DNA of 64,000 nucleotides, taken from Acidobacteriota bacterium. GTDB lineage: Bacteria; Acidobacteriota; Thermoanaerobaculia; UBA5066. The notes beneath the pieces are model-generated. The model was not told the origin of the DNA. It was given only the letters and a program-made list of their open reading frames with translations, and ran no database searches. Positions 19,086-39,982 of the stretch are shown one piece after another. The stretch is taken from the NCBI GenBank assembly GCA_029781975.1, contig JAKOVQ010000023.1:62001-126000 (forward strand), written 5' to 3'. Positions within the stretch are counted from its first letter, which is position 1, and every line of letters starts with the position of its first letter. A program made the translations under genes and the position numbers.

Positions 19086-19367
19086 TCAGAGGGGGCCCAG
19101 GCAAGTCTGAAGCTGGTCCAGGAAGCTTGCGATGTCAGCCTGCGCCCGGGCCTCGTCAACATTGAATTCGGACGTGATCCTTCTAACGAGATTCGTCTCG
19201 TCGATGACGCCAGAGCGGATGGCGTCAATCAGCACGGCTCCGGTCGGATTCAAGGTCAAGACTTGAAGCCCGTTCATGTCGAGGATGACTCCGGAACCGT
19301 CCGAGAGGGAGGAGTAGGAGAGGCGCTCCGAGCGGAGTGCGGCTGCGGCTCTTTCAAGGTGGTTCAT
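19086..19367 (-). CDS. PqqD-family RiPP recognition element protein (lasso B1-like)
   Basis: 93 residues, the size of a stand-alone PqqD/RRE domain. It shows the family's order: a beta hairpin 'GVILDMNGLQVLTLNPTGAVLIDAI' (the LNPTG motif at about 39-43), then helices with 'VRRITSEFNVDEARAQADIASFLDQL'. RRE proteins bind the leader peptide of a RiPP precursor and hand it to the modifying enzymes. The ATG at 19367 is chosen because GGAG lies 8 bases upstream and the result has family length. It is divergent from the kinase-cyclase-precursor operon. No pqq genes are near, so a role in PQQ synthesis is not supported. Confidence 0.85.
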   Translation of the reverse strand: MNHLERAAAALRSERLSYSSLSDGSGVILDMNGLQVLTLNPTGAVLIDAIRSGVIDETNLVRRITSEFNVDEARAQADIASFLDQLQTCLGPL

Positions 19368-19403
19368 GTGACACTCCGAAGAGGATCCAGAGAGTTCATC
19401 GTT

Positions 19404-19432
19404 ATCATACGCATTCAACCGGCGGCTGCCGA
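19404..19432 (-). promoter_or_regulatory. Candidate promoter for the RRE gene
   Basis: On the minus strand TCGGCA (19427-19432), 17-base spacer, TATGAT (19404-19409), 36 bases before the RRE start codon. The -10 hexamer matches 5 of 6 consensus bases. The 116-base divergent region must also hold the promoter for the kinase operon, which I cannot pick out with confidence. Confidence 0.5.
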
Positions 19433-19483
19433 GTCGATGCCGGGCTTGGGGTCCTGCCGTCTTCACGAGTCGCCGACCCGAGA

Positions 19484-20518
19484 ATGCCCCTGACGGAACC
19501 CACCAACCTGGCTTTCAGCCACGATCACACCTGCGTGGTCAGCTTCGGCGGCTTTGGCCGATCGACGCTCGAGAGGGTCGCGCGCGTCTGGCGGCTTTCG
19601 CGGGTAGAAGGGAACGTACCTGAGCCGTACGTGGTCGAGAGAATCCCCTGGACGTCGGTCATAGAGCGATTCTGGGAAGCGAGGCCTCGGCCGGGCGAGC
19701 ACCTGAGCTGGCGCAGGCTCCTGGATGAAGACGTCCTCATCGGAGTCTCGGGGGTGCTCTGGCTATCCCCGGGCAGGCCTGGTGCCCGCGTTGCGCTGCA
19801 ACCGGCGGCGGGGTCTTCGCCGGACGTCGATGAGCTGATCGGTGCTGCGATCGTTCACGCCCTTTCGCGCCGAGGCCGGGTGCCGCTGCATGGAATGGCT
19901 GCGACAGTAGGCGGCAGGGGTGTCCTGGCCCTGGGACAATCGATGGTCGGGAAGTCGACGCTGGCGCTCGCACTGCTCCATGTCGGCGGTCGGCTTGTTT
20001 CGGACGACTTCCTGCTCTGCCAATGGGCTCCTGAAGGCGCCAGGGTCCTTGCCTTGAGGGAGGACCTCTACGTACGGGAGGGTAGCTTTCCGCTGATTCC
20101 AAACGAGCTTCGTTCCAGGTTCTCAGAAGACCTGCCGGGTTCGGGTCGGATGGTACTGCGGCGAGAAGACGCCCCGGCCTGCTTCGCTGACGAACTCTCA
20201 CCGGACGCGGTGTGGTTCCTCGACGCCGTCCGGGCGGCTCCCGAAACGGAACTAATCAGACTGACTCAGGCGCAAGCGCTGGCCAGTCTTTTCGCCAGCA
20301 CGAGCCCTTTGTTTGCGAGCGGCAAGTACCTGGAGGAGAGGCGCCAGATGCTTCCGGTCTTGCTGAGGCTGGCCGAAGCAGCGGCCTGCTTCAAGGTGAG
20401 GCTCGGAAGCAGCCTGCTCGACTCGCCGATCCGGGTGGTGAACGACCTACTGAAGCGGGCCACACGCTCAATCCCAACGCCGAGGCAGCCGCCAGGCGAC
20501 GGTTTGAAGACCGCATGA
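19484..20518 (+). CDS. HprK-related kinase of a RiPP (lasso-type) cluster
   Basis: 344 residues from the ATG at 19484. The C-terminal half is an HPr-kinase-like P-loop domain. 'PLHGMAATVGGRGVLALGQSMVGKSTLALALL' holds the Walker A at residues 151-159, and 'GGRLVSDDFLL' provides the acidic pair seen in this family. In lasso clusters such kinases phosphorylate the precursor or mature peptide (paeninodin type), and relatives occur with PqqD proteins in other loci. True HPr kinase is unlikely: there is no HPr gene here and the N-terminal half differs. It is followed after 103 bases by the cyclase gene. Its third-position GC is lower than in flanking regions. Confidence 0.8.
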   Translation: MPLTEPTNLAFSHDHTCVVSFGGFGRSTLERVARVWRLSRVEGNVPEPYVVERIPWTSVIERFWEARPRPGEHLSWRRLLDEDVLIGVSGVLWLSPGRPGARVALQPAAGSSPDVDELIGAAIVHALSRRGRVPLHGMAATVGGRGVLALGQSMVGKSTLALALLHVGGRLVSDDFLLCQWAPEGARVLALREDLYVREGSFPLIPNELRSRFSEDLPGSGRMVLRREDAPACFADELSPDAVWFLDAVRAAPETELIRLTQAQALASLFASTSPLFASGKYLEERRQMLPVLLRLAEAAACFKVRLGSSLLDSPIRVVNDLLKRATRSIPTPRQPPGDGLKTA

Positions 20519-20621
20519 TCGATAGTATCGAAGCGAGTTCAACTCGGCCCTTCATCGAAGGGAAGCAATGGATCTGTAGCCGATTGCGGCCCGAGGCCAA
20601 ACGCCCCGCAGCCTGAGCAGC

Positions 20622-22412
20622 ATGGGTGGGATTCTGGCAGTAATTGGTGGACGGGGAGATCCTGAGCTCGAAGAGCGCCTCACCCAGATGATGGCGGTAT
20701 CCCCGCATCGAGGGGTGGCAGTGCGGGTGCTTAAGACCGAGTTCGGCCTAGCGATGGCGGTGCAGAGCCGCTTTGGCGAATCGACGGTCGTCCAGGACGG
20801 GAGCAGCCTGACTGCCGTGACCGGTTGGCTTGCCGACACCGGTCAGCCATGGTCGTCACTCCCCGGGAGCGCGGGACGGGGCGAGCGACTTGCGGGGAAG
20901 CTGGCCCGCTCGCTCGTCGCGGCAGACCTCGAGGGGATCCGCGAATGCGCGGGTGCCTGGACGGCGCTGCAGTTCGACACGAGGTCCGGGACGCTGAGAG
21001 TGGCGCGGGACGTCTCAGGCTCCCACAGTCTGCTCTATAGATGGGATCGGGACCGACTGATCATTGCAACCGAGGTTGCCCAGATAGCAGCCGGATCCTC
21101 GCAGGGACTCGAGCCGGATGTCGAGACGATCGTCCGAGAGCTGGTCATGCGTTTTGAACCGGGCGAGGTATCACTCTTCAAAGGGGTGGGGGCGTTCAGG
21201 CCGGGGTGCCTGACGACGATCGAGTGGGGTGCTCAGCGCTCGACGTCACGGGAGTTCTGGGCGCCGCCCTCGGCGGAGAAGGGCAGCCTGGCACCTGATG
21301 AAGCTCGAGAAGCCCTTGCGGCTGCCGTGTCGGCGTGCGTTCGGCGGAGCCCGCCGCTGGGGTCTGCTGCGATTACGCTGAGCGGAGGTGTCGATTCAGG
21401 TCTCGTATGGGTCACCCAACGCGCGCTCCCCCTGCAGGGACCGGGGCCAGTGGTGAAGGCGCCTCTCGCTCTCAGCCTCACGTTTCCGGGATGGGGCTGC
21501 GATGAGACACAGGAGATTGATCGCCTCATCGGAGCAACTGGGGGAGAAGCGGTATGCCTCCGCGGTGACTTTCCTGGTGTCGTGGAGCTGGCTACGGTGC
21601 TGGCCAGCCGGCTTGATACTCTCCCGTATGACACGGCGTATTTTGCGGTACTCCTTGCTCAAGAGGCCAGCCGTCGTGGTTGTAAGATCCTCCAAACAGG
21701 CCATGGAGGCGATCACTGGCTCGCGAGTCCCCGCGCGCCTGCGACGCTCAGGATGCTCACTCGACGCGCGGCAGGGGTGCCGAGAGCACTGCAGCGACGG
21801 TTTCGGGCGTTGACGGACGGGGCCTCGGGGAGTTCCGGCGCTCTTCGTGGGAGACAAAAGCAGACGCCAGGTTCGCTGGCCTGGCTCGCGCCCGCTTGGC
21901 GGGAAGCGTTGGTTGCGAAGAACAGTACGGGTCACGGCAATGTCTACGGAGACGACCTGCTGCGAAATTGTCTAGGGTATGAGCAGTACGGATTCGGACA
22001 GCGGACGTGGGAACGCCTAGCAAGTCGGGAGGGCCTTCTGGTCCATCACCCGCTGATGGACCGGGAGCTGATTGAGTTCGCCTTTCGCTATTGGCGCTCG
22101 TTCGGGCAAGCGGGCCGGAAGGACGTGGCGATTTCCGTCCTGCGTCAGGTCATCGCAGATCATCGCTGCTTCATCGAGAAGAAAAGGTACTTTGATTCGC
22201 TCATCGTGAGTCGATTCCCTGATCTGACAAGACTTTTCCCGATTGAATGCAGCCAGCTCGTTCGGCTGGGAATAGCTGACCGGGATGGACTTGACAGAAC
22301 GCGTCGGTCTCCGGATGATGACCCCGAGAAGATCCGATGGTGGGCACGGCTCTGCCTTACTGAGCTCTGGCTTCAGAATTGGTTCAAGGGCGTTTCCGGA
22401 GGGAGGTGCTGA
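20622..22412 (+). CDS. Asparagine-synthetase-like lasso cyclase (McjC/LasC type)
   Basis: 596 residues in AsnB layout. The N-terminal Ntn-like half begins 'MGGILAVIGG' and lacks the Cys nucleophile right after Met that glutamine-dependent enzymes need. The C-terminal ATP-pyrophosphatase half has 'TLSGGVDSGLVW' (P-loop at residues 254-260), 'TGHGGDHWLAS' and 'VHHPLMDRELIEFAFRYW'. Loss of the glutaminase Cys with an intact adenylation site is what lasso macrolactam synthetases show: they adenylate an Asp/Glu side chain and join it to the peptide N-terminus. The stop overlaps the ATG of a 62-residue peptide gene. The neighbouring RRE, kinase and nucleotidyltransferase support this over a housekeeping asparagine synthetase. 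Confidence 0.82.
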   Translation: MGGILAVIGGRGDPELEERLTQMMAVSPHRGVAVRVLKTEFGLAMAVQSRFGESTVVQDGSSLTAVTGWLADTGQPWSSLPGSAGRGERLAGKLARSLVAADLEGIRECAGAWTALQFDTRSGTLRVARDVSGSHSLLYRWDRDRLIIATEVAQIAAGSSQGLEPDVETIVRELVMRFEPGEVSLFKGVGAFRPGCLTTIEWGAQRSTSREFWAPPSAEKGSLAPDEAREALAAAVSACVRRSPPLGSAAITLSGGVDSGLVWVTQRALPLQGPGPVVKAPLALSLTFPGWGCDETQEIDRLIGATGGEAVCLRGDFPGVVELATVLASRLDTLPYDTAYFAVLLAQEASRRGCKILQTGHGGDHWLASPRAPATLRMLTRRAAGVPRALQRRFRALTDGASGSSGALRGRQKQTPGSLAWLAPAWREALVAKNSTGHGNVYGDDLLRNCLGYEQYGFGQRTWERLASREGLLVHHPLMDRELIEFAFRYWRSFGQAGRKDVAISVLRQVIADHRCFIEKKRYFDSLIVSRFPDLTRLFPIECSQLVRLGIADRDGLDRTRRSPDDDPEKIRWWARLCLTELWLQNWFKGVSGGRC

Positions 22413-22600
22413 TGTCAACGAACGAAGACCCTTCAACGGTGAAAGGGGAGGTGCCGACGACCGCGGCATGTTCAGCGGCCTCGCTCCCTGATCGACGCGG
22501 GTATGAGCCGCCCAGGTTCCTGGTCGTCCCGCTCATTGCGGCCGTGAACGGGGCTCCGGGATCGATTCGGGACGGCGTCACAAGCGGAAGGAGGCCTTGA
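22412..22600 (+). CDS. Candidate lasso-type RiPP precursor peptide
   Basis: 62 residues. The ATG overlaps the cyclase stop (TGATG) with a strong GGGAGG ribosome site at 22401-22406. The leader contains YEPPRF at residues 31-36, fitting the YxxPx-hydrophobic motif that lasso RRE proteins bind. A core starting at Gly47 would read GAPGSIRDGVTSGRRP, placing Asp54 at core position 8, so a Gly1-Asp8 eight-residue ring is possible. Tyr lies at -16 and Pro at -13, one residue nearer the core than in classical leaders. The -2 residue is Val45, not the usual Thr, so the cleavage site is uncertain. Core Thr/Ser at positions 11-12 are possible kinase targets. No other small gene in the cluster fits better. 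Confidence 0.72.
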   Translation: MSTNEDPSTVKGEVPTTAACSAASLPDRRGYEPPRFLVVPLIAAVNGAPGSIRDGVTSGRRP

Positions 22601-22602
22601 CG

Positions 22603-23274
22603 ATGCGAGTATCGAAGTTTTGGCGCCGGACAACGGTAGCGATGGTGGGACTGATCACGGCTCTCGCGGGAGTCGCTAACGCCGGCCCAATCAATCTGAC
22701 CGCGCGTCCGCGGGGAGGCACGACCAGCGGTGGGGTAAAGGGCGGCGGGGCGGCCCCAACGCAAGGACCTGCCACGGGAACGACGTGGTATGCGCAGGCC
22801 CCCTTTGGAGCGCAGATCTTCGGATACAGGAACGAGACCGTCGCGTGCGTCAACCTCCCCTTCACGAGCGCCTACACCGACTTCTTCACAAAGGAATTTT
22901 TGGCGCTTCCAAGCACGGAAGCCGTCGAAGTCGAATTCAACGCCGCTTTCAACCTCTTCCCCGAAACGACGGAGAGGCTTGGGGTATCTCTCCAGTGTAC
23001 GGTGGAGCAGGATACGACTGGTGGCGGCTACGATCCGCCCGTTCCGTGCTCCGGGATCGATTCGGATCCTGGACTGGCACCCTACATCACGTTCTCCTCA
23101 TCCACGGACGTTTGGGGCTTCACGCAGCAGGCGTCGTACACGGGTTACGTTGCAGTACCAAAGGCGGATCCTCCAGTGAAGACCCGGGTCAAGCTCTCGC
23201 TGAAGCCGTGGCGTTTCGTCGGGTCGGCGGGGGCGGTTCTGGTCTGCAATGGGAACATCAGGATTAGCTACTAG
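22603..23274 (+). CDS. Secreted protein co-encoded with the RiPP precursor
   Basis: 223 residues beginning 2 bases after the precursor stop, with AAGGAGG upstream of the ATG. Signal peptide residues 1-26 ('VAMVGLITALAGVANA'). A Gly/Thr-rich linker ('RPRGGTTSGGVKGGGAAP') leads to a beta-rich domain with four Cys (in 'TVACVNLPF', 'SLQCTVEQ', 'PVPCSGID' and 'LVCNGNIRISY'), suggesting two disulfides in the periplasm or outside the cell. I recognise no family. Its tight coupling to the precursor suggests a role with the peptide product (binding, immunity or target), which is inference. Confidence 0.72.
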   Translation: MRVSKFWRRTTVAMVGLITALAGVANAGPINLTARPRGGTTSGGVKGGGAAPTQGPATGTTWYAQAPFGAQIFGYRNETVACVNLPFTSAYTDFFTKEFLALPSTEAVEVEFNAAFNLFPETTERLGVSLQCTVEQDTTGGGYDPPVPCSGIDSDPGLAPYITFSSSTDVWGFTQQASYTGYVAVPKADPPVKTRVKLSLKPWRFVGSAGAVLVCNGNIRISY

Positions 23275-23540
23275 ATAGGCGCGGCGAGGCCAGAGCGGGG
23301 AGAACTTCCCTGCGCGGAGGGAAACGCTGGTTCTGAAGGTTCGGAATGAAGGAGGGTCTCGAGGCATCGCAAGCCCGTCCTAGCGAACCGGAGTGGAATA
23401 TCATGGCTTCTGTAGAGCCATTGCCGGATGTGCGACGGGCGGTGTGGGTTCTACCAATCAATCGAACCACTTCACTTACCCCACGGGTACTTCGGTTACG
23501 AGATCGGAGTGCGATTCGAGGGGTCTGCGCCGCTCTCTCG

Positions 23541-24707
23541 TTAGCCCGCCTTCGCAATCTTCGCCCGCCTCAGCCGTAGCGCCAGGTCGAACGGCCTGAG
23601 CAGCTGCCGCGCGGCGTAGCCCCCCCAGCGTCTCGGCCGCCCGTAGATCGCGTCCACCTGGGCGCGGCTGAGGACGACGGCCTTGTAGACCCACCTCAGG
23701 GTGGCGAGGGGGAAAGGTAGATCCGTTGGACTCCGAAATGACCGGGGGTTTGCCTTGAGGCCGAGGGCGTAGGCCGGGTCGACGTTGCCTGAGACGAGGT
23801 GATGGAGAAGGGAGCGGGGCGTGCCGTCGGGGAGATCGAGCGCCGATCCGGACGCGAGAGCCGAGAGGAGCGAGCCGACCGTCTCGAGGTCGTCGGGGTC
23901 GAAGTCGCGAAGGAAGCGGCCGGCTTCGGGCAGCTGCTCGGGCCCGGCGCCGAGGTCCTGCAGGTCCGCGAGGAAGCGGAAGAGCGGATACGAGCCGGGG
24001 GCGTAGCCGTGCTGGACGAGGCCGTGGACGAGGACGTGGGCGATGAGGACGGTGCGAGCGGGAGCGCGAACGGTGCCGCCAAAGGCGGGGAGAGGCTCCT
24101 TCAAACCCGCGTCGAGAAGGGTCTTCGCGTCGAAGGAGCGACGGGAGCCGGGAGGGCGGACGCCGGGGACGCACCGGTGGAGCTCGATCATTCCGAGCGA
24201 CGAGTGCGTGAGGGGCGCCTCCTGGTGCTCGCTCCCGGCAAGCGGGGAGAGGGTCCAGCCTGCCGCGACGAGGGCGGTGCGCAGCTCGAGGATGCGGTCG
24301 AGAGGGACGAGGATGTCGAGGTCGCAAAAGGCGCGCGCGCCGGGCAGGCTGATACCGAGGAGGCCGATCGCGCTCCCCTTGAGGACGACGAGGGGAATTC
24401 CCAGGTTGGCTGCGAGACCGGCGACGTTCCGCAGCGTGACCTCGTAGCGAAGGGCGTTTGCCGCGGCGAGATGAGCGGCGCGCGTGAACTCGTTGGCCGT
24501 CGACCCCACCTCGGCGTTCAAGGTGCCTGGGCCGCTCCGGGCGCCGATCCGGGCCGCGAGGTCGAACCGGGTGGCGAGGTCGAGGGCCGCGGCGGGATCG
24601 CGTGGTGGGGCAACGGGGGTCTCGGGGCTCGCGAAGGCGCGGTGAAGGACCCAGCGCAGCTCGGGGGTGGGATCGACGCGGGGTGGGTGGAAGCGGACGG
24701 CCTTCAA
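23541..24707 (-). CDS. Nucleotidyltransferase-like protein (lasso-cluster type, PF14907-like)
   Basis: 388 residues on the minus strand. The catalytic region shows 'LGIPLVVLKGSAIGLLG' (LKGSA at 109-113) and 'GARAFCDLDILVPL' with the metal Asp pair at 129 and 131. These are the G-S and DxD elements of the uncharacterised nucleotidyltransferase family that often sits in lasso clusters with HprK-like kinases; a member in the pseudomycoidin pathway phosphorylates its peptide. The start is TTG at 24707, without a clear ribosome site. It is convergent with the secreted protein gene and about 1.1 kb from the precursor. Codon use is strongly GC3, unlike the cyclase and kinase, so it may be of different age in the locus. 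Confidence 0.78.
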   Translation of the reverse strand: MKAVRFHPPRVDPTPELRWVLHRAFASPETPVAPPRDPAAALDLATRFDLAARIGARSGPGTLNAEVGSTANEFTRAAHLAAANALRYEVTLRNVAGLAANLGIPLVVLKGSAIGLLGISLPGARAFCDLDILVPLDRILELRTALVAAGWTLSPLAGSEHQEAPLTHSSLGMIELHRCVPGVRPPGSRRSFDAKTLLDAGLKEPLPAFGGTVRAPARTVLIAHVLVHGLVQHGYAPGSYPLFRFLADLQDLGAGPEQLPEAGRFLRDFDPDDLETVGSLLSALASGSALDLPDGTPRSLLHHLVSGNVDPAYALGLKANPRSFRSPTDLPFPLATLRWVYKAVVLSRAQVDAIYGRPRRWGGYAARQLLRPFDLALRLRRAKIAKAG

Positions 24708-37006: not shown

Positions 37007-37423
37007 ATGATCGACGTCGGATATCACGGTCGGGCCGTCCTGCTGGCGCTTCGCCTCGAGGCGAGGGAGCGGCGGGGGAGGCCGTTGCTCCCGGGGCGCC
37101 GCACGGGGCGCGGCGCGAGCCGGCTGTCGCCTCGCGACGCCGAGCAGTCCGTCCTGGCCAGCCGGCGGGCCGTCTCGCGGATCTGCCGGCTGAACACGTG
37201 CCTCACGAGGTCGATCGTCCTCTTCCAGCTCCTGGAGAGGCGGTTCCCGGTGGAGCTGGTGCTGGGCTTCCGGCCGGGCCGGGAGGGGGTGGAGGGGCAC
37301 GCCTGGGTGACGGTGGACGGTGTGCCCCTGGGGGAGACCGAGGCGGGCCTCGAGGGGTTCGTGCCGGTGGCTGCAGATCAGCGGGCGGGGGCCAGGCCCG
37401 AGGCGGTCTTCAGGTCCTCGTGA
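37007..37423 (+). CDS. Lasso peptide B2 (McjB-like) transglutaminase-fold protease
   Basis: 138 residues. The C-terminal half is a clear McjB_C domain: 'CRLNTCLTRSIVLFQLLERR' with catalytic Cys65, then 'VELVLGFRPGREGVEGHAWVTVDG' with His98. The acid is Asp104 or Glu110; the C-to-H distance of 33 fits the family. B2 proteins cut the leader from lasso precursors so that the cyclase can close the ring. No precursor, RRE (other than a fragment) or cyclase is adjacent: upstream is the nucleotide cyclase and downstream the bufferin operon. The only cyclase, at 20622-22412, lacks its own B2, so this gene may serve it in trans. Codon use is strongly GC3, unlike the cyclase. Confidence 0.85.
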   Translation: MIDVGYHGRAVLLALRLEARERRGRPLLPGRRTGRGASRLSPRDAEQSVLASRRAVSRICRLNTCLTRSIVLFQLLERRFPVELVLGFRPGREGVEGHAWVTVDGVPLGETEAGLEGFVPVAADQRAGARPEAVFRSS

Positions 37424-37600
37424 CCTCCACGACCATCCCCGACGCGACGAGCCGGGCCAGGTAGCCGAGGACGTCCGCCTCGAGGCCGATCCCGCCGCCC
37501 GCCCCGGCGCCGCTCACCGTCACGTCGCCGCAGGTGGTACCGCCCTTCGACGTGGCGATCGCCGCTCCGGGCGGTCGGCCGGTATTGACATCGCGTCTCG
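37410..37600 (-). pseudogene. RRE/PqqD-like C-terminal coding fragment
   Basis: The minus strand between about 37600 and the TGA at 37410-37412 reads open with almost every codon ending in G or C, the mark of real coding sequence here, but has no start codon or ribosome site in frame. The end reads 'GGTTCGDVTVSGAGAGGG' then 'IGLEADVLGYLARLVASGMV', which resembles the last two helices of PqqD-type RRE proteins. It overlaps the B2 3' end by 14 bases, tail to tail. It could be a truncated lasso B1 gene or an unrelated decayed gene; the assignment is tentative. Confidence 0.35.
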
Positions 37601-37726: not shown

Positions 37727-38017
37727 ATGAACCGTCGTCAGATCATCGGCGCCGTTGCGGCCATCGCGGCCGCGTCCGTCTTCTCCGCCCAGTACGGGGC
37801 CGCGGAGGACGCCAAGCCCGCCGCCGCGAAGAACTTCAAGTGCGTCGGCGGGAACGCGTGCAAGGGGCAGAGCGAGTGCGGCGTGAAGGGCGCCCACGGC
37901 TGCCACGGCCAGAACTCCTGCCGCGGCAAGGGCTGGGTGATGGTGGAGAACGAGGCGGCGTGCAAGGAGGCGAAGGCCAAGAACGCCGAGGCGGAGAAGC
38001 ACCAGAAGAAGGGGTGA
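37727..38017 (+). CDS. bufA: Bufferin-type Cys-rich RiPP precursor
   Basis: 96 residues with GAGGAGG six bases before the ATG. A Sec-type signal peptide (1-26, 'QIIGAVAAIAAASVFSAQYGAA') serves as leader. The mature part has six Cys (39, 45, 51, 59, 65, 79) in repeated CKGQ, CHGQNSC and CRGKGW units, then a Lys/Glu-rich tail. This is the layout of BufA2-type bufferins, whose Cys residues are turned into thiooxazoles by an MNIO enzyme; the products bind copper and protect against copper stress. The MNIO and partner genes follow directly. A hairpin after the stop probably gives more precursor than enzyme mRNA. Confidence 0.88.
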   Translation: MNRRQIIGAVAAIAAASVFSAQYGAAEDAKPAAAKNFKCVGGNACKGQSECGVKGAHGCHGQNSCRGKGWVMVENEAACKEAKAKNAEAEKHQKKG

Positions 38018-38043
38018 CACCCGACAGGGGGCGGCGGCCCCTG

Positions 38044-38100
38044 GGGCCCGGCTTCCGGCGGACCTTCGGGCCCTCCCGGGAGCCGGGCCCTTCTTCCTTT
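38044..38100 (+). terminator. Attenuator-like hairpin between precursor and MNIO genes
   Basis: A 15-bp stem with one mismatch (38044-38058 pairing with 38076-38090, both built on GGGCCCGGCT/AGCCGGGCCC), 17-base loop, then the pyrimidine run TTCTTCCTTT. Placed 27 bases after the precursor stop, it should end most transcripts and let a minority read into the enzyme genes. Confidence 0.7.
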
Positions 38101-38130
38101 CGGATGCGCCAGCTGAGATCCTGAGAGCCG

Positions 38131-39012
38131 ATGGCCGTCGACCGCCCCGTCCCCTTCCTCGGGTTCGGCATCGGGCTGCGCCGCGAGCACTACCGGGAGA
38201 TCCTGGAAGGGGAGCCGCGGTGCGACTTCTTCGAGGCGATCTCGGAGAACTACATGGAGGTCGGGGGCCGCGCGCGCGAGGTGCTGCTGGCCGTGCGCGA
38301 GCGCTTCCCGCTGGTGCTCCACGGCGTCTCGCTCTCCATCGGCTCGACCGACCCGCTCGACACGGGGTATCTGCGCGCGCTCAGGGCGCTGGCGGAGGAC
38401 GTCGCTCCGGAGTGGGTCTCGGACCACCTCTGCTGGACGGGAGTGGGGGGGCACAACGCCCACGACCTCCTCCCGCTCCCCTACACGGAGGAGGCGCTGG
38501 CGCACGTCGTCGAGCGGGTGAGGCGGGTGCAGGACGCCCTGGGGCGCCGGATCGCGCTGGAGAACGTCTCGAGCTACATGACCTACCGGGCCTCCGAGAT
38601 GCCCGAGTGGGAGTTCGTGGCGCGGGTGGCGGAGGGGGCCGACTGCGGCCTCCTCTTCGACGTGAACAACATCTTCGTCAGCGGCCACAACCACGGCTTC
38701 GACCCTCGCACCTACCTCGAGGCGATCCCCCCGGAGCGCGTCTGGCAGATCCACCTCGCCGGCCCCTCCGAGCGCGGCGCCCTCCTCCTGGACACCCACG
38801 ACAGCCCGGTCCGCGACGAGGTCTGGGAGCTTTACCGCCTCGCCCTCCTCCGCTTCGGCCCCGTCTCCACCATCCTCGAGCGCGACGACCACATCCCCCC
38901 CCTTGCCGAAGTCCTCGCCGAACGCGACCACGCCGCCCGGATCGCAGATCACCCCGACCGGAGGTCTCCCAACCGGGGGTCACCAACCGGGGGTCAGGTC
39001 TGTGATCCGTGA
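38131..39012 (+). CDS. bufB: MNIO-family (DUF692) bufferin-modifying enzyme
   Basis: 293 residues, TIM-barrel multinuclear non-heme iron oxidase. Probable iron ligands are seen in order: His64 ('LVLHGVSLSIGS'), Asp98/His99 ('VSDHLCW'), Glu144 ('LENVSSY'), Asp177 ('LFDVNNIFVSGHNHG'), His186/His188, His208 ('QIHLAG'), Asp221/His223 ('LDTHDSPV') and Glu250 ('ILERDD'). Members oxidise precursor Cys residues, making oxazolone-thioamide in methanobactin or thiooxazole in bufferins. The last residues ('RRSPNRGSPTGGQVCDP') and the stop codon are encoded by a REP-like palindrome, so the native C-terminus may have been replaced. Confidence 0.92.
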   Translation: MAVDRPVPFLGFGIGLRREHYREILEGEPRCDFFEAISENYMEVGGRAREVLLAVRERFPLVLHGVSLSIGSTDPLDTGYLRALRALAEDVAPEWVSDHLCWTGVGGHNAHDLLPLPYTEEALAHVVERVRRVQDALGRRIALENVSSYMTYRASEMPEWEFVARVAEGADCGLLFDVNNIFVSGHNHGFDPRTYLEAIPPERVWQIHLAGPSERGALLLDTHDSPVRDEVWELYRLALLRFGPVSTILERDDHIPPLAEVLAERDHAARIADHPDRRSPNRGSPTGGQVCDP

Positions 39013-39085
39013 TCCGGGCCGCCCCTCGGGCGATGGAGAGTCACCCGTGACCAGGATGGAAATCACGGATCACAGACCTGACCCC
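38990..39085. repeat. REP-like palindromic element forming the bufB-bufC junction
   Basis: Two perfectly complementary 24-base arms (38990-39013 and 39062-39085) flank a 48-base centre. The outer ends read GGGGTCAGGTC, a sequence style common in REP elements moved by IS200/RAYT-type transposases. Just before it AACCGGGGGTCA is present twice (38971-38982 and 38985-38996). The left arm contains the bufB stop; the right arm encodes the start of bufC. It could also act as an mRNA hairpin tuning bufC expression. Confidence 0.8.
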
Positions 39086-39982
39086 AAGGTCGGTGATCCC
39101 AATCTCGACCTGGCGGGGGTGCAGGGGGCGGTGTGGGAGCTGATCGTGGCGCCGGAGGGGGTGGCGAAGGCGCTGGAGGAGGGGCCGGGGAGGCGGGAGG
39201 CGCTGGCGGCGCTGCTGGCGGGAGACGAGCGGGCGACGGCCGAGGAGCGGCTGGACGTCTACGCGAACATGTACTTCTTCCGGATCAAGGCGGCGCTGGA
39301 GGAGGACTTCCCGCGGACTGCGGCGGTCCTGGGAGAGGCCCGGTGGCACAACCTGGTGACCGACTACCTCCTGGCGCACCCGTCGACGCACTGGTCGCTC
39401 CGGTGGGTGGGGCGGCGCTTGCCGGCCTTCGTCCGGGCGCGGTCGGGGCGGGAGGGCTTCCCCCCCTGGCTGGGCGATCTCTCCGAGCTGGAGTGGGCCC
39501 GCGGCGCCGCCTTCCAGGCCGAGGACGCGCCGGCCGCGACCCGGGCCGACCTGGCCGCCGTCGCGCCGGAAAGGTGGGGCGAGCTGCGGTTCGCGGCAGT
39601 GCCGGGGGCTCAGCTCCTGGTGCTGGGATGGGACGTGCCTGCCGCCTGGGACGCCCTGGAGGAGCAGCGGGGGTCGGGCGGACCGGTCCCGGACGTCCCG
39701 GTCGGGCCCCGGACCGTCCTGGTCTACAGAGAAGCTGGCGACGACGCCCACGAGGCGTTGGAGGGGGGCGAGGCCCACGCAACCCGCATGTTGTTCGAGG
39801 GAAGAGACTTCGCCGAGGTGTGCGAGACGTTCCTCCCGGCTGTGGAGGACGCTGCAGAGGGCACCGCCGAGATCTCGCCCGAGGCCGCGGAGGCCGCCGG
39901 CGCACGGGCGGTGGCGCTTCTCGTCTCGCTCGTCGACCGCGGAGTCCTCCGCCTGGCTCGCCCGGCCGGTGAGGCTGGCTGA
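39047..39982 (+). CDS. bufC: DUF2063 partner of the MNIO enzyme (MbnC-like)
   Basis: 311 residues from the GTG at 39047, preferred because GGAGAG lies 6 bases upstream; an ATG at 39056 is also in frame. The N-terminal DUF2063 domain is clear: 'LAGVQGAVWELIVAPEGVAKAL', 'ERLDVYANMYFFRIKAALEEDFPRTAAVLG' and 'LVTDYLLAHPSTHWSLRWVGRRLPAFV'. Such proteins bind the precursor leader and form a complex with the MNIO enzyme. The first about 13 residues come from the REP-like element and are probably not part of the fold. No DoxX-like membrane gene (bufD) follows: the next gene is unrelated. Confidence 0.88.
   Translation: MTRMEITDHRPDPKVGDPNLDLAGVQGAVWELIVAPEGVAKALEEGPGRREALAALLAGDERATAEERLDVYANMYFFRIKAALEEDFPRTAAVLGEARWHNLVTDYLLAHPSTHWSLRWVGRRLPAFVRARSGREGFPPWLGDLSELEWARGAAFQAEDAPAATRADLAAVAPERWGELRFAAVPGAQLLVLGWDVPAAWDALEEQRGSGGPVPDVPVGPRTVLVYREAGDDAHEALEGGEAHATRMLFEGRDFAEVCETFLPAVEDAAEGTAEISPEAAEAAGARAVALLVSLVDRGVLRLARPAGEAG

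What the first reader, a model, noticed from the sequence alone, without database searches (positions are those of the whole stretch)
19086..24707. Lasso-peptide-like RiPP cluster with kinase and nucleotidyltransferase but no local B2 protease
Seen: a PqqD/RRE protein, an HprK-like kinase with Walker A, an AsnB-like protein lacking the glutaminase Cys, a coupled 62-residue peptide, a secreted protein and a PF14907-like nucleotidyltransferase. Known: RRE plus AsnB-like cyclase plus precursor defines lasso loci, and HprK-like kinases and such nucleotidyltransferases modify some lasso peptides. Inference: this is a phosphorylated or otherwise tailored lasso-type peptide pathway, with leader cleavage supplied from elsewhere.
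Basis: partly seen in the sequence, partly recalled or inferred. Interest (0 to 1): 0.85.

Follow-up and report, generated by a model that had tools for sequence, protein, structure and literature searches.

The report
Tailored lasso-peptide gene cluster, protease elsewhere
The genes encode a small knotted (lasso) peptide that is probably phosphorylated; it is a new, divergent member of a known antibiotic-like peptide type, notable for a protease gene that lies about 13 kb away and for a conserved secreted partner protein of unknown role.

Summary
In detail: PqqD/RRE, HprK-like kinase, AsnB-like cyclase without the glutaminase Cys, a translationally coupled 62-residue peptide, a secreted protein and a PF14907 nucleotidyltransferase are all present. 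The lasso reading is well supported. The AsnB-like protein falls in a five-member clade (SH-aLRT 100) inside the Cys-less lasso-cyclase clade, apart from Cys-bearing amidotransferases including E. coli AsnB. All five loci carry a precursor with YxxP, Val/Ile(-2), Gly1 and an acidic residue at position 8 (9 in one); window core GAPGSIRDGVTSGRRP.

"No local B2" needs correcting: the genome's only B2 homologue lies in this window at 37007-37423, 12-18 kb from the cluster. It passes the curated lasso-B2 model and has native codon usage, whereas the cluster is a low-GC island; acting in trans is inferred. A second genome shows the same split; three others have B2 in the cluster.

The kinase carries the catalytic residues of BsfK, which phosphorylates a ring Ser in a described lasso precursor with Ile(-2). 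The window core ends in Pro, so C-terminal Ser phosphorylation is excluded; ring Ser5 is likeliest.

New here: a leader one residue shorter, and a secreted protein family found only beside these cyclases. A new variant of a known kind.

The parts
19086..19367 (-). PqqD-type RRE (B1) protein, 93 aa; binds the leader
   Evidence: PF05402 E=9e-12; NCBIfam lasso_PqqD model E=9e-10, below its cut-off; homologues at all related loci
19484..20518 (+). HprK-like precursor kinase, 344 aa
   Evidence: PF07475 E=1.8e-8; H, G, GKS and DD residues of characterised BsfK conserved
20622..22412 (+). AsnB-like lasso cyclase (C protein), 596 aa, no glutaminase Cys, SGGVDS ATP motif
   Evidence: PF00733 E=1.5e-13; tree
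22412..22600 (+). lasso precursor peptide, 62 aa; leader YEPPRF...V(-2)N(-1), predicted core GAPGSIRDGVTSGRRP (last 16 codons, Gly1-Asp8 ring)
   Evidence: TGATG overlap with the cyclase; aligns with four related precursors and BsfA; core boundary inferred
22603..23274 (+). secreted protein, 223 aa, family with conserved Cys, found only at these loci
   Evidence: homologues directly behind the precursor in L028, L029, L082
23541..24707 (-). PF14907 nucleotidyltransferase (N protein)
   Evidence: PF14907 E=2.7e-18; homologues at three related loci
37007..37423 (+). unlinked B2 leader-peptidase homologue, 138 aa, the only one in the genome
   Evidence: PF13471 E=1.2e-16; NF033537 lasso_biosyn_B2 58.1 bits, cut-off 33; Cys and His aligned with other B2

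Best explanation
This is a lasso-peptide pathway with a tailoring kinase and nucleotidyltransferase, apparently acquired as a low-GC island without its own protease. Proposed order: the RRE protein holds the leader of the 62-residue precursor; the HprK-like kinase phosphorylates a core hydroxyl before leader removal, most likely ring Ser5; the native B2 protease encoded at 37007-37423 cuts after Asn(-1) in trans; the AsnB-like cyclase activates Asp8 with ATP and closes the Gly1-Asp8 ring around the tail; the PF14907 protein adds a hexose or nucleotide to the phosphate; an unlinked ABC exporter releases it. The co-operonic secreted protein probably meets the product outside the cytoplasm, as carrier, receptor or immunity factor. 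The gene set, phylogeny and precursor pattern are shown; the enzymatic steps, their order, the trans B2 and the role of the secreted protein are inferred.
For: Cyclase within the lasso clade and apart from Cys-bearing synthetases. Five cognate precursors with YxxP, V/I(-2), G1 and D8, E8 or D9. Three related loci have B2 inside the cluster, close to or overlapping the RRE gene, so this gene family does use B2. The genome has one B2, passing the curated model. The other split locus, in G368, also has a single, unlinked B2. Kinase residues match BsfK, which phosphorylates ring Ser3 of a lasso precursor with Ile(-2) in a cluster with an N gene (PMC10368454). Island: genes from 19086 to 23274 have GC3 0.67-0.75 against 0.91-0.97 for most neighbours, and the lowest 4-kb GC of the window.
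Against: B2 in the trans role is untested; its best match is another unlinked B2 (G013) in a polysaccharide-type locus, not a cluster B2. Position 3, the BsfK site, is Pro here. In BsfA, changing Ile(-2) to Val nearly abolished leader removal by its B2 (PMC10368454), so B2 enzymes are selective. No local exporter. The window cyclase sits on a long branch (1.92). No expression or product data.
Confidence: 0.64

Rival explanations
1. A genuine lasso pathway, but the leader is removed by an unrelated host protease or by a B2 lost from the assembly; the B2 at 37007 serves something else.
For: The B2 at 37007 has native codon usage and resembles an unlinked B2 of a relative. The assembly is 96% complete. 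A published title states that pseudomycoidin forms in vivo without leader and leader peptidase (cited in PMC9266682).
Against: It is the only B2 of the genome and passes the lasso-B2 cut-off; the second split genome shows the same arrangement.
Confidence: 0.2
2. An imported cluster that has lost B2 and its exporter and is decaying; no product is made.
For: No B2 or ABC exporter gene in the cluster, while the related cluster L082 has both; long cyclase branch.
Against: All reading frames are intact, catalytic residues of kinase and cyclase are kept, and the translational coupling is intact.
Confidence: 0.1
3. An AsnB-type peptide modification that is not a lasso, for example an unthreaded macrolactam, or one that acts on the secreted protein.
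For: The secreted protein is as tightly coupled as the peptide; threading cannot be read from sequence.
Against: Cyclase phylogeny, RRE/B2 partners and the Gly1-Asp8 precursor pattern are those of lasso systems; one related locus lacks the secreted protein.
Confidence: 0.06

Closest known systems
bsf cluster of Bradymonas sediminis (BsfA/B1/B2/C/K/N), PMC10368454
   Same: Kinase and N gene, RRE as separate B1, Ile/Val at leader -2, core starting GxxG with Asp8 (GTSGNEVD vs GAPGSIRD); kinase motif shared except one dispensable Gly; the paper reports Ile/Val(-2) precursors in Acidobacteriaceae too
   Different: Here the leader from Tyr is 16 not 17 residues, position 3 is Pro and Ser is at 5, B2 is unlinked, and a secreted protein follows the precursor; homology is detectable only by profile (kinase 31.6 bits)
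Paeninodin (PadeK) and pseudomycoidin (PsmK/PsmN) clusters, as reviewed in PMC9266682
   Same: HprK-like kinase; in pseudomycoidin also a nucleotidyltransferase-type protein needed for hexose addition
   Different: Those modify a C-terminal Ser; the window core ends in Pro
Related loci found here: L028 (G368), L029 (G174), L082 (G537), L083 (G523)
   Same: Cyclase clade, kinase, RRE, precursor; secreted protein and N in L028, L029, L082
   Different: B2 is local in L029, L082, L083; L028 adds a sulfotransferase and a second RRE; L029 has the precursor in frame with the cyclase; L083 lacks the secreted protein

Membership tests
Lasso peptide cluster | AsnB-like cyclase without the glutaminase Cys, in the lasso-cyclase clade | tested here: met
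   MGGIL start; tree
Lasso peptide cluster | RRE (B1) protein | tested here: met
   PF05402
Lasso peptide cluster | B2 transglutaminase-like leader peptidase encoded (usually in the cluster) | tested here: inconclusive
   Not in the cluster; the only B2 of the genome is 12-18 kb away; its link to the cluster is inferred
Lasso peptide cluster | Precursor with YxxP leader motif and core Gly1 plus Asp/Glu 7-9 | tested here: met
   third position of the YxxPxL motif is Phe here
Lasso peptide cluster | Thr at leader -2 (common, not universal) | tested here: not met
   Val here; Ile/Val(-2) is a documented lasso subgroup (PMC10368454), so this does not exclude membership
Lasso peptide cluster | Threaded macrolactam product | not testable with these tools
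   needs MS and NMR
Phosphorylated lasso peptides (PadeK/BsfK type kinase) | HprK-like kinase with H, GxxxxGKS, DD residues | tested here: met
   the Gly at BsfK 166, dispensable there, is Met
Phosphorylated lasso peptides, PadeK type | C-terminal Ser as acceptor | tested here: not met
   Core ends in Pro
Phosphorylated lasso peptides, BsfK type | Ser/Thr at core position 3 | tested here: not met
   Pro3, Ser5 in the window; Thr3 in L082 and L083

The most novel reading that the evidence does not exclude
The conserved secreted protein is a new dedicated component of lasso systems: an extracytoplasmic partner that binds the modified lasso peptide as carrier, receptor or immunity protein. It occurs in four of five loci of this clade, always directly after the precursor, and in no other genome searched.
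Probability: 0.3. Interest if true: 0.6.

Novelty: new variant of a known kind. Interest (0 to 1): 0.42.

Why it matters
It defines a small, sharply bounded clade of kinase-bearing lasso clusters in which the C-terminal Ser rule of paeninodin-type kinases cannot apply. It offers two directly testable questions: whether one B2 protease can serve an unlinked, separately acquired cluster, and what a secreted protein tied to a lasso precursor does. The kinase site (Ser5 against Ser3) would also test how these kinases choose their residue.

Tried and rejected
PqqD-like tail on the minus strand behind the B2 (37423-37560): it looked like a decayed RRE, but Pfam and my profile gave no support; dropped. 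Second and third AsnB-like genes of the genome (contig 32): one weak Asn_synthase protein not near lasso genes and, by my reading of its sequence, a QueC-type enzyme; not lasso cyclases. Weak matches to the secreted family in G105 and G523 (E about 0.006) cover mainly the signal region and are unrelated proteins. Structure of the secreted protein from a single sequence gave a low-confidence beta sandwich (pLDDT 52); Foldseek hits to viral jelly rolls and CBM22 have TM below 0.5 and about 10% identity and are not used. A dedicated exporter was not found: the best ABC homologue is 39% identical and unlinked.

Full report
Observation. Window 19086-24707 holds a divergently arranged set: PqqD/RRE (19086-19367, -), HprK-like kinase (19484-20518, +), AsnB-like protein (20622-22412, +), a 62-residue peptide (22412-22600, +), a secreted protein (22603-23274, +) and a PF14907 nucleotidyltransferase (23541-24707, -). 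The last three + strand genes are tightly coupled: TGATG between cyclase and peptide, and the next ATG directly after the peptide stop. The AsnB-like protein starts MGGIL, so the glutaminase Cys is absent, and keeps SGGVDS.

Is it a lasso cyclase? No close relative exists in the held genomes of its order. A profile search shows a sharp break: two further members at E about 1e-90, then everything else at 1e-55 or weaker within the class, and at 1e-69 or weaker in the phylum sample. In a tree with E. coli AsnB and other Cys-bearing amidotransferases, the window protein sits in a five-row clade (SH-aLRT 100) inside a clade made almost wholly of Cys-less proteins from lasso-type loci (100). I labelled rows 'lasso' by absence of Cys and by neighbours, so the label is partly by construction; the position apart from the Cys-bearing enzymes is not. 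The window branch is long (1.92).

Precursor. The related loci L028, L029, L082 and L083 each have a cognate peptide: YAAPTLVVRRLEEVVR|GEEGSEPDVYGAATEP, YEKPRLEASPLEQVVA|GGSPTGVRDGLRTLRKG, YEQPLVSGHALDQAVR|GNTGSFTDGDPAGFHVG, YAPPTIAVSRAHAAIA|GGTGPTKEPVVEPGAPDMMA; the window has YEPPRFLVVPLIAAVN|GAPGSIRDGVTSGRRP. With the cut placed so, all have Val or Ile at -2, Gly1, and Asp8, Glu8 or Asp9. The leader counts 16 residues from Tyr; the canonical count is 17 (Tyr -17 in BsfA, PMC10368454). Boundaries are inferred; in L029 a cut one residue later would give a 17-residue count and an 8-residue ring. The pattern is found in 0.4% of shuffles of the window peptide.

Known relatives. Duan et al. (PMC10368454) characterised the bsf cluster of Bradymonas: Ile(-2), kinase BsfK phosphorylating ring Ser3 with help of the RRE, a B2 needing Ile(-2), an N gene, and Ile/Val(-2) precursors in Acidobacteriaceae and Sphingomonadales. 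BsfA, B1, B2 and K match my family profiles weakly but specifically (12.0, 26.0, 38.4 and 31.6 bits). The catalytic residues of BsfK are conserved in the window kinase except Gly166, whose change to Ala that paper found harmless. Paeninodin and pseudomycoidin kinases use a C-terminal Ser (PMC9266682); the window core ends in Pro. Ser5 is shared by window, L028 and L082; L082 and L083 have Thr3, and L029 has Ser3 in the 9-ring register. I therefore favour Ser5, at moderate confidence.

B2. The genome (96% complete) has one PF13471 protein, at window 37007-37423. It passes NCBIfam's lasso_biosyn_B2 cut-off (58.1 against 33) and aligns at Cys and His with cluster B2 proteins. It lies 12-18 kb from the cluster genes, directly before a bufferin cluster. 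L029, L082 and L083 carry B2 in the cluster, close to or overlapping the RRE gene. L028's genome has one unlinked B2 beside an RRE gene of its own. The window B2 has native codon usage (GC3 0.93), the cluster genes 0.67-0.75 (the nucleotidyltransferase 0.87), and the cluster is the GC minimum of the window. The simplest account is import of a cluster without B2 that relies on a resident B2. Against it, the nearest B2 is an unlinked one in G013 (37% over 118 residues), which may have another function.

Secreted protein. Its family occurs directly after the precursor in window, L028, L029 and L082 (23-31% identity to the window protein). Profile searches of 396 phylum genomes and of 93 and 149 class genomes (overlapping sets) found it only at these loci (two weak hits rejected). 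No Pfam, NCBIfam or PDB sequence match. The link to this clade is therefore strong; the role is unknown, and carrier, receptor or immunity is inference from secretion and coupling.

Verdict.

Noticed in passing
37727-39982: Bufferin-type cluster: BufA2-like secreted Cys peptide (NCBIfam 54.3 bits, just under its cut-off of 60), MNIO maturase BufB (364.7 bits, over cut-off) and a DUF2063 protein, directly behind the B2 gene.
   Followed up: partly
L029:8030-8320 (-): In G174 the lasso precursor is in frame with the cyclase with no stop between, so cyclase and precursor may be one polypeptide (an internal ATG could also start the peptide).
   Followed up: partly
L028:697-1734 (-) and L028:5636-6406 (+): Related lasso locus with a sulfotransferase gene (PF13469) and two tandem RRE proteins.
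   Followed up: partly
L044:8839-9592 (+): Unlinked RRE + B2 gene pair with no cyclase beside it in G368; suggests that B1-B2 pairs have a life outside lasso clusters.
   Followed up: partly
L098:2251-11406: In G014 a Cys-rich peptide with a leader of nitrile-hydratase type, a B2-like protein, a radical SAM-like protein, an RRE and an HprK-like kinase lie together (named partly by eye); may be an unusual RiPP system.
   Followed up: no
19086-23274: Low-GC island (GC about 63% against 70.6%, GC3 0.67-0.75) in a very GC-rich genome, consistent with horizontal gain.
   Followed up: yes
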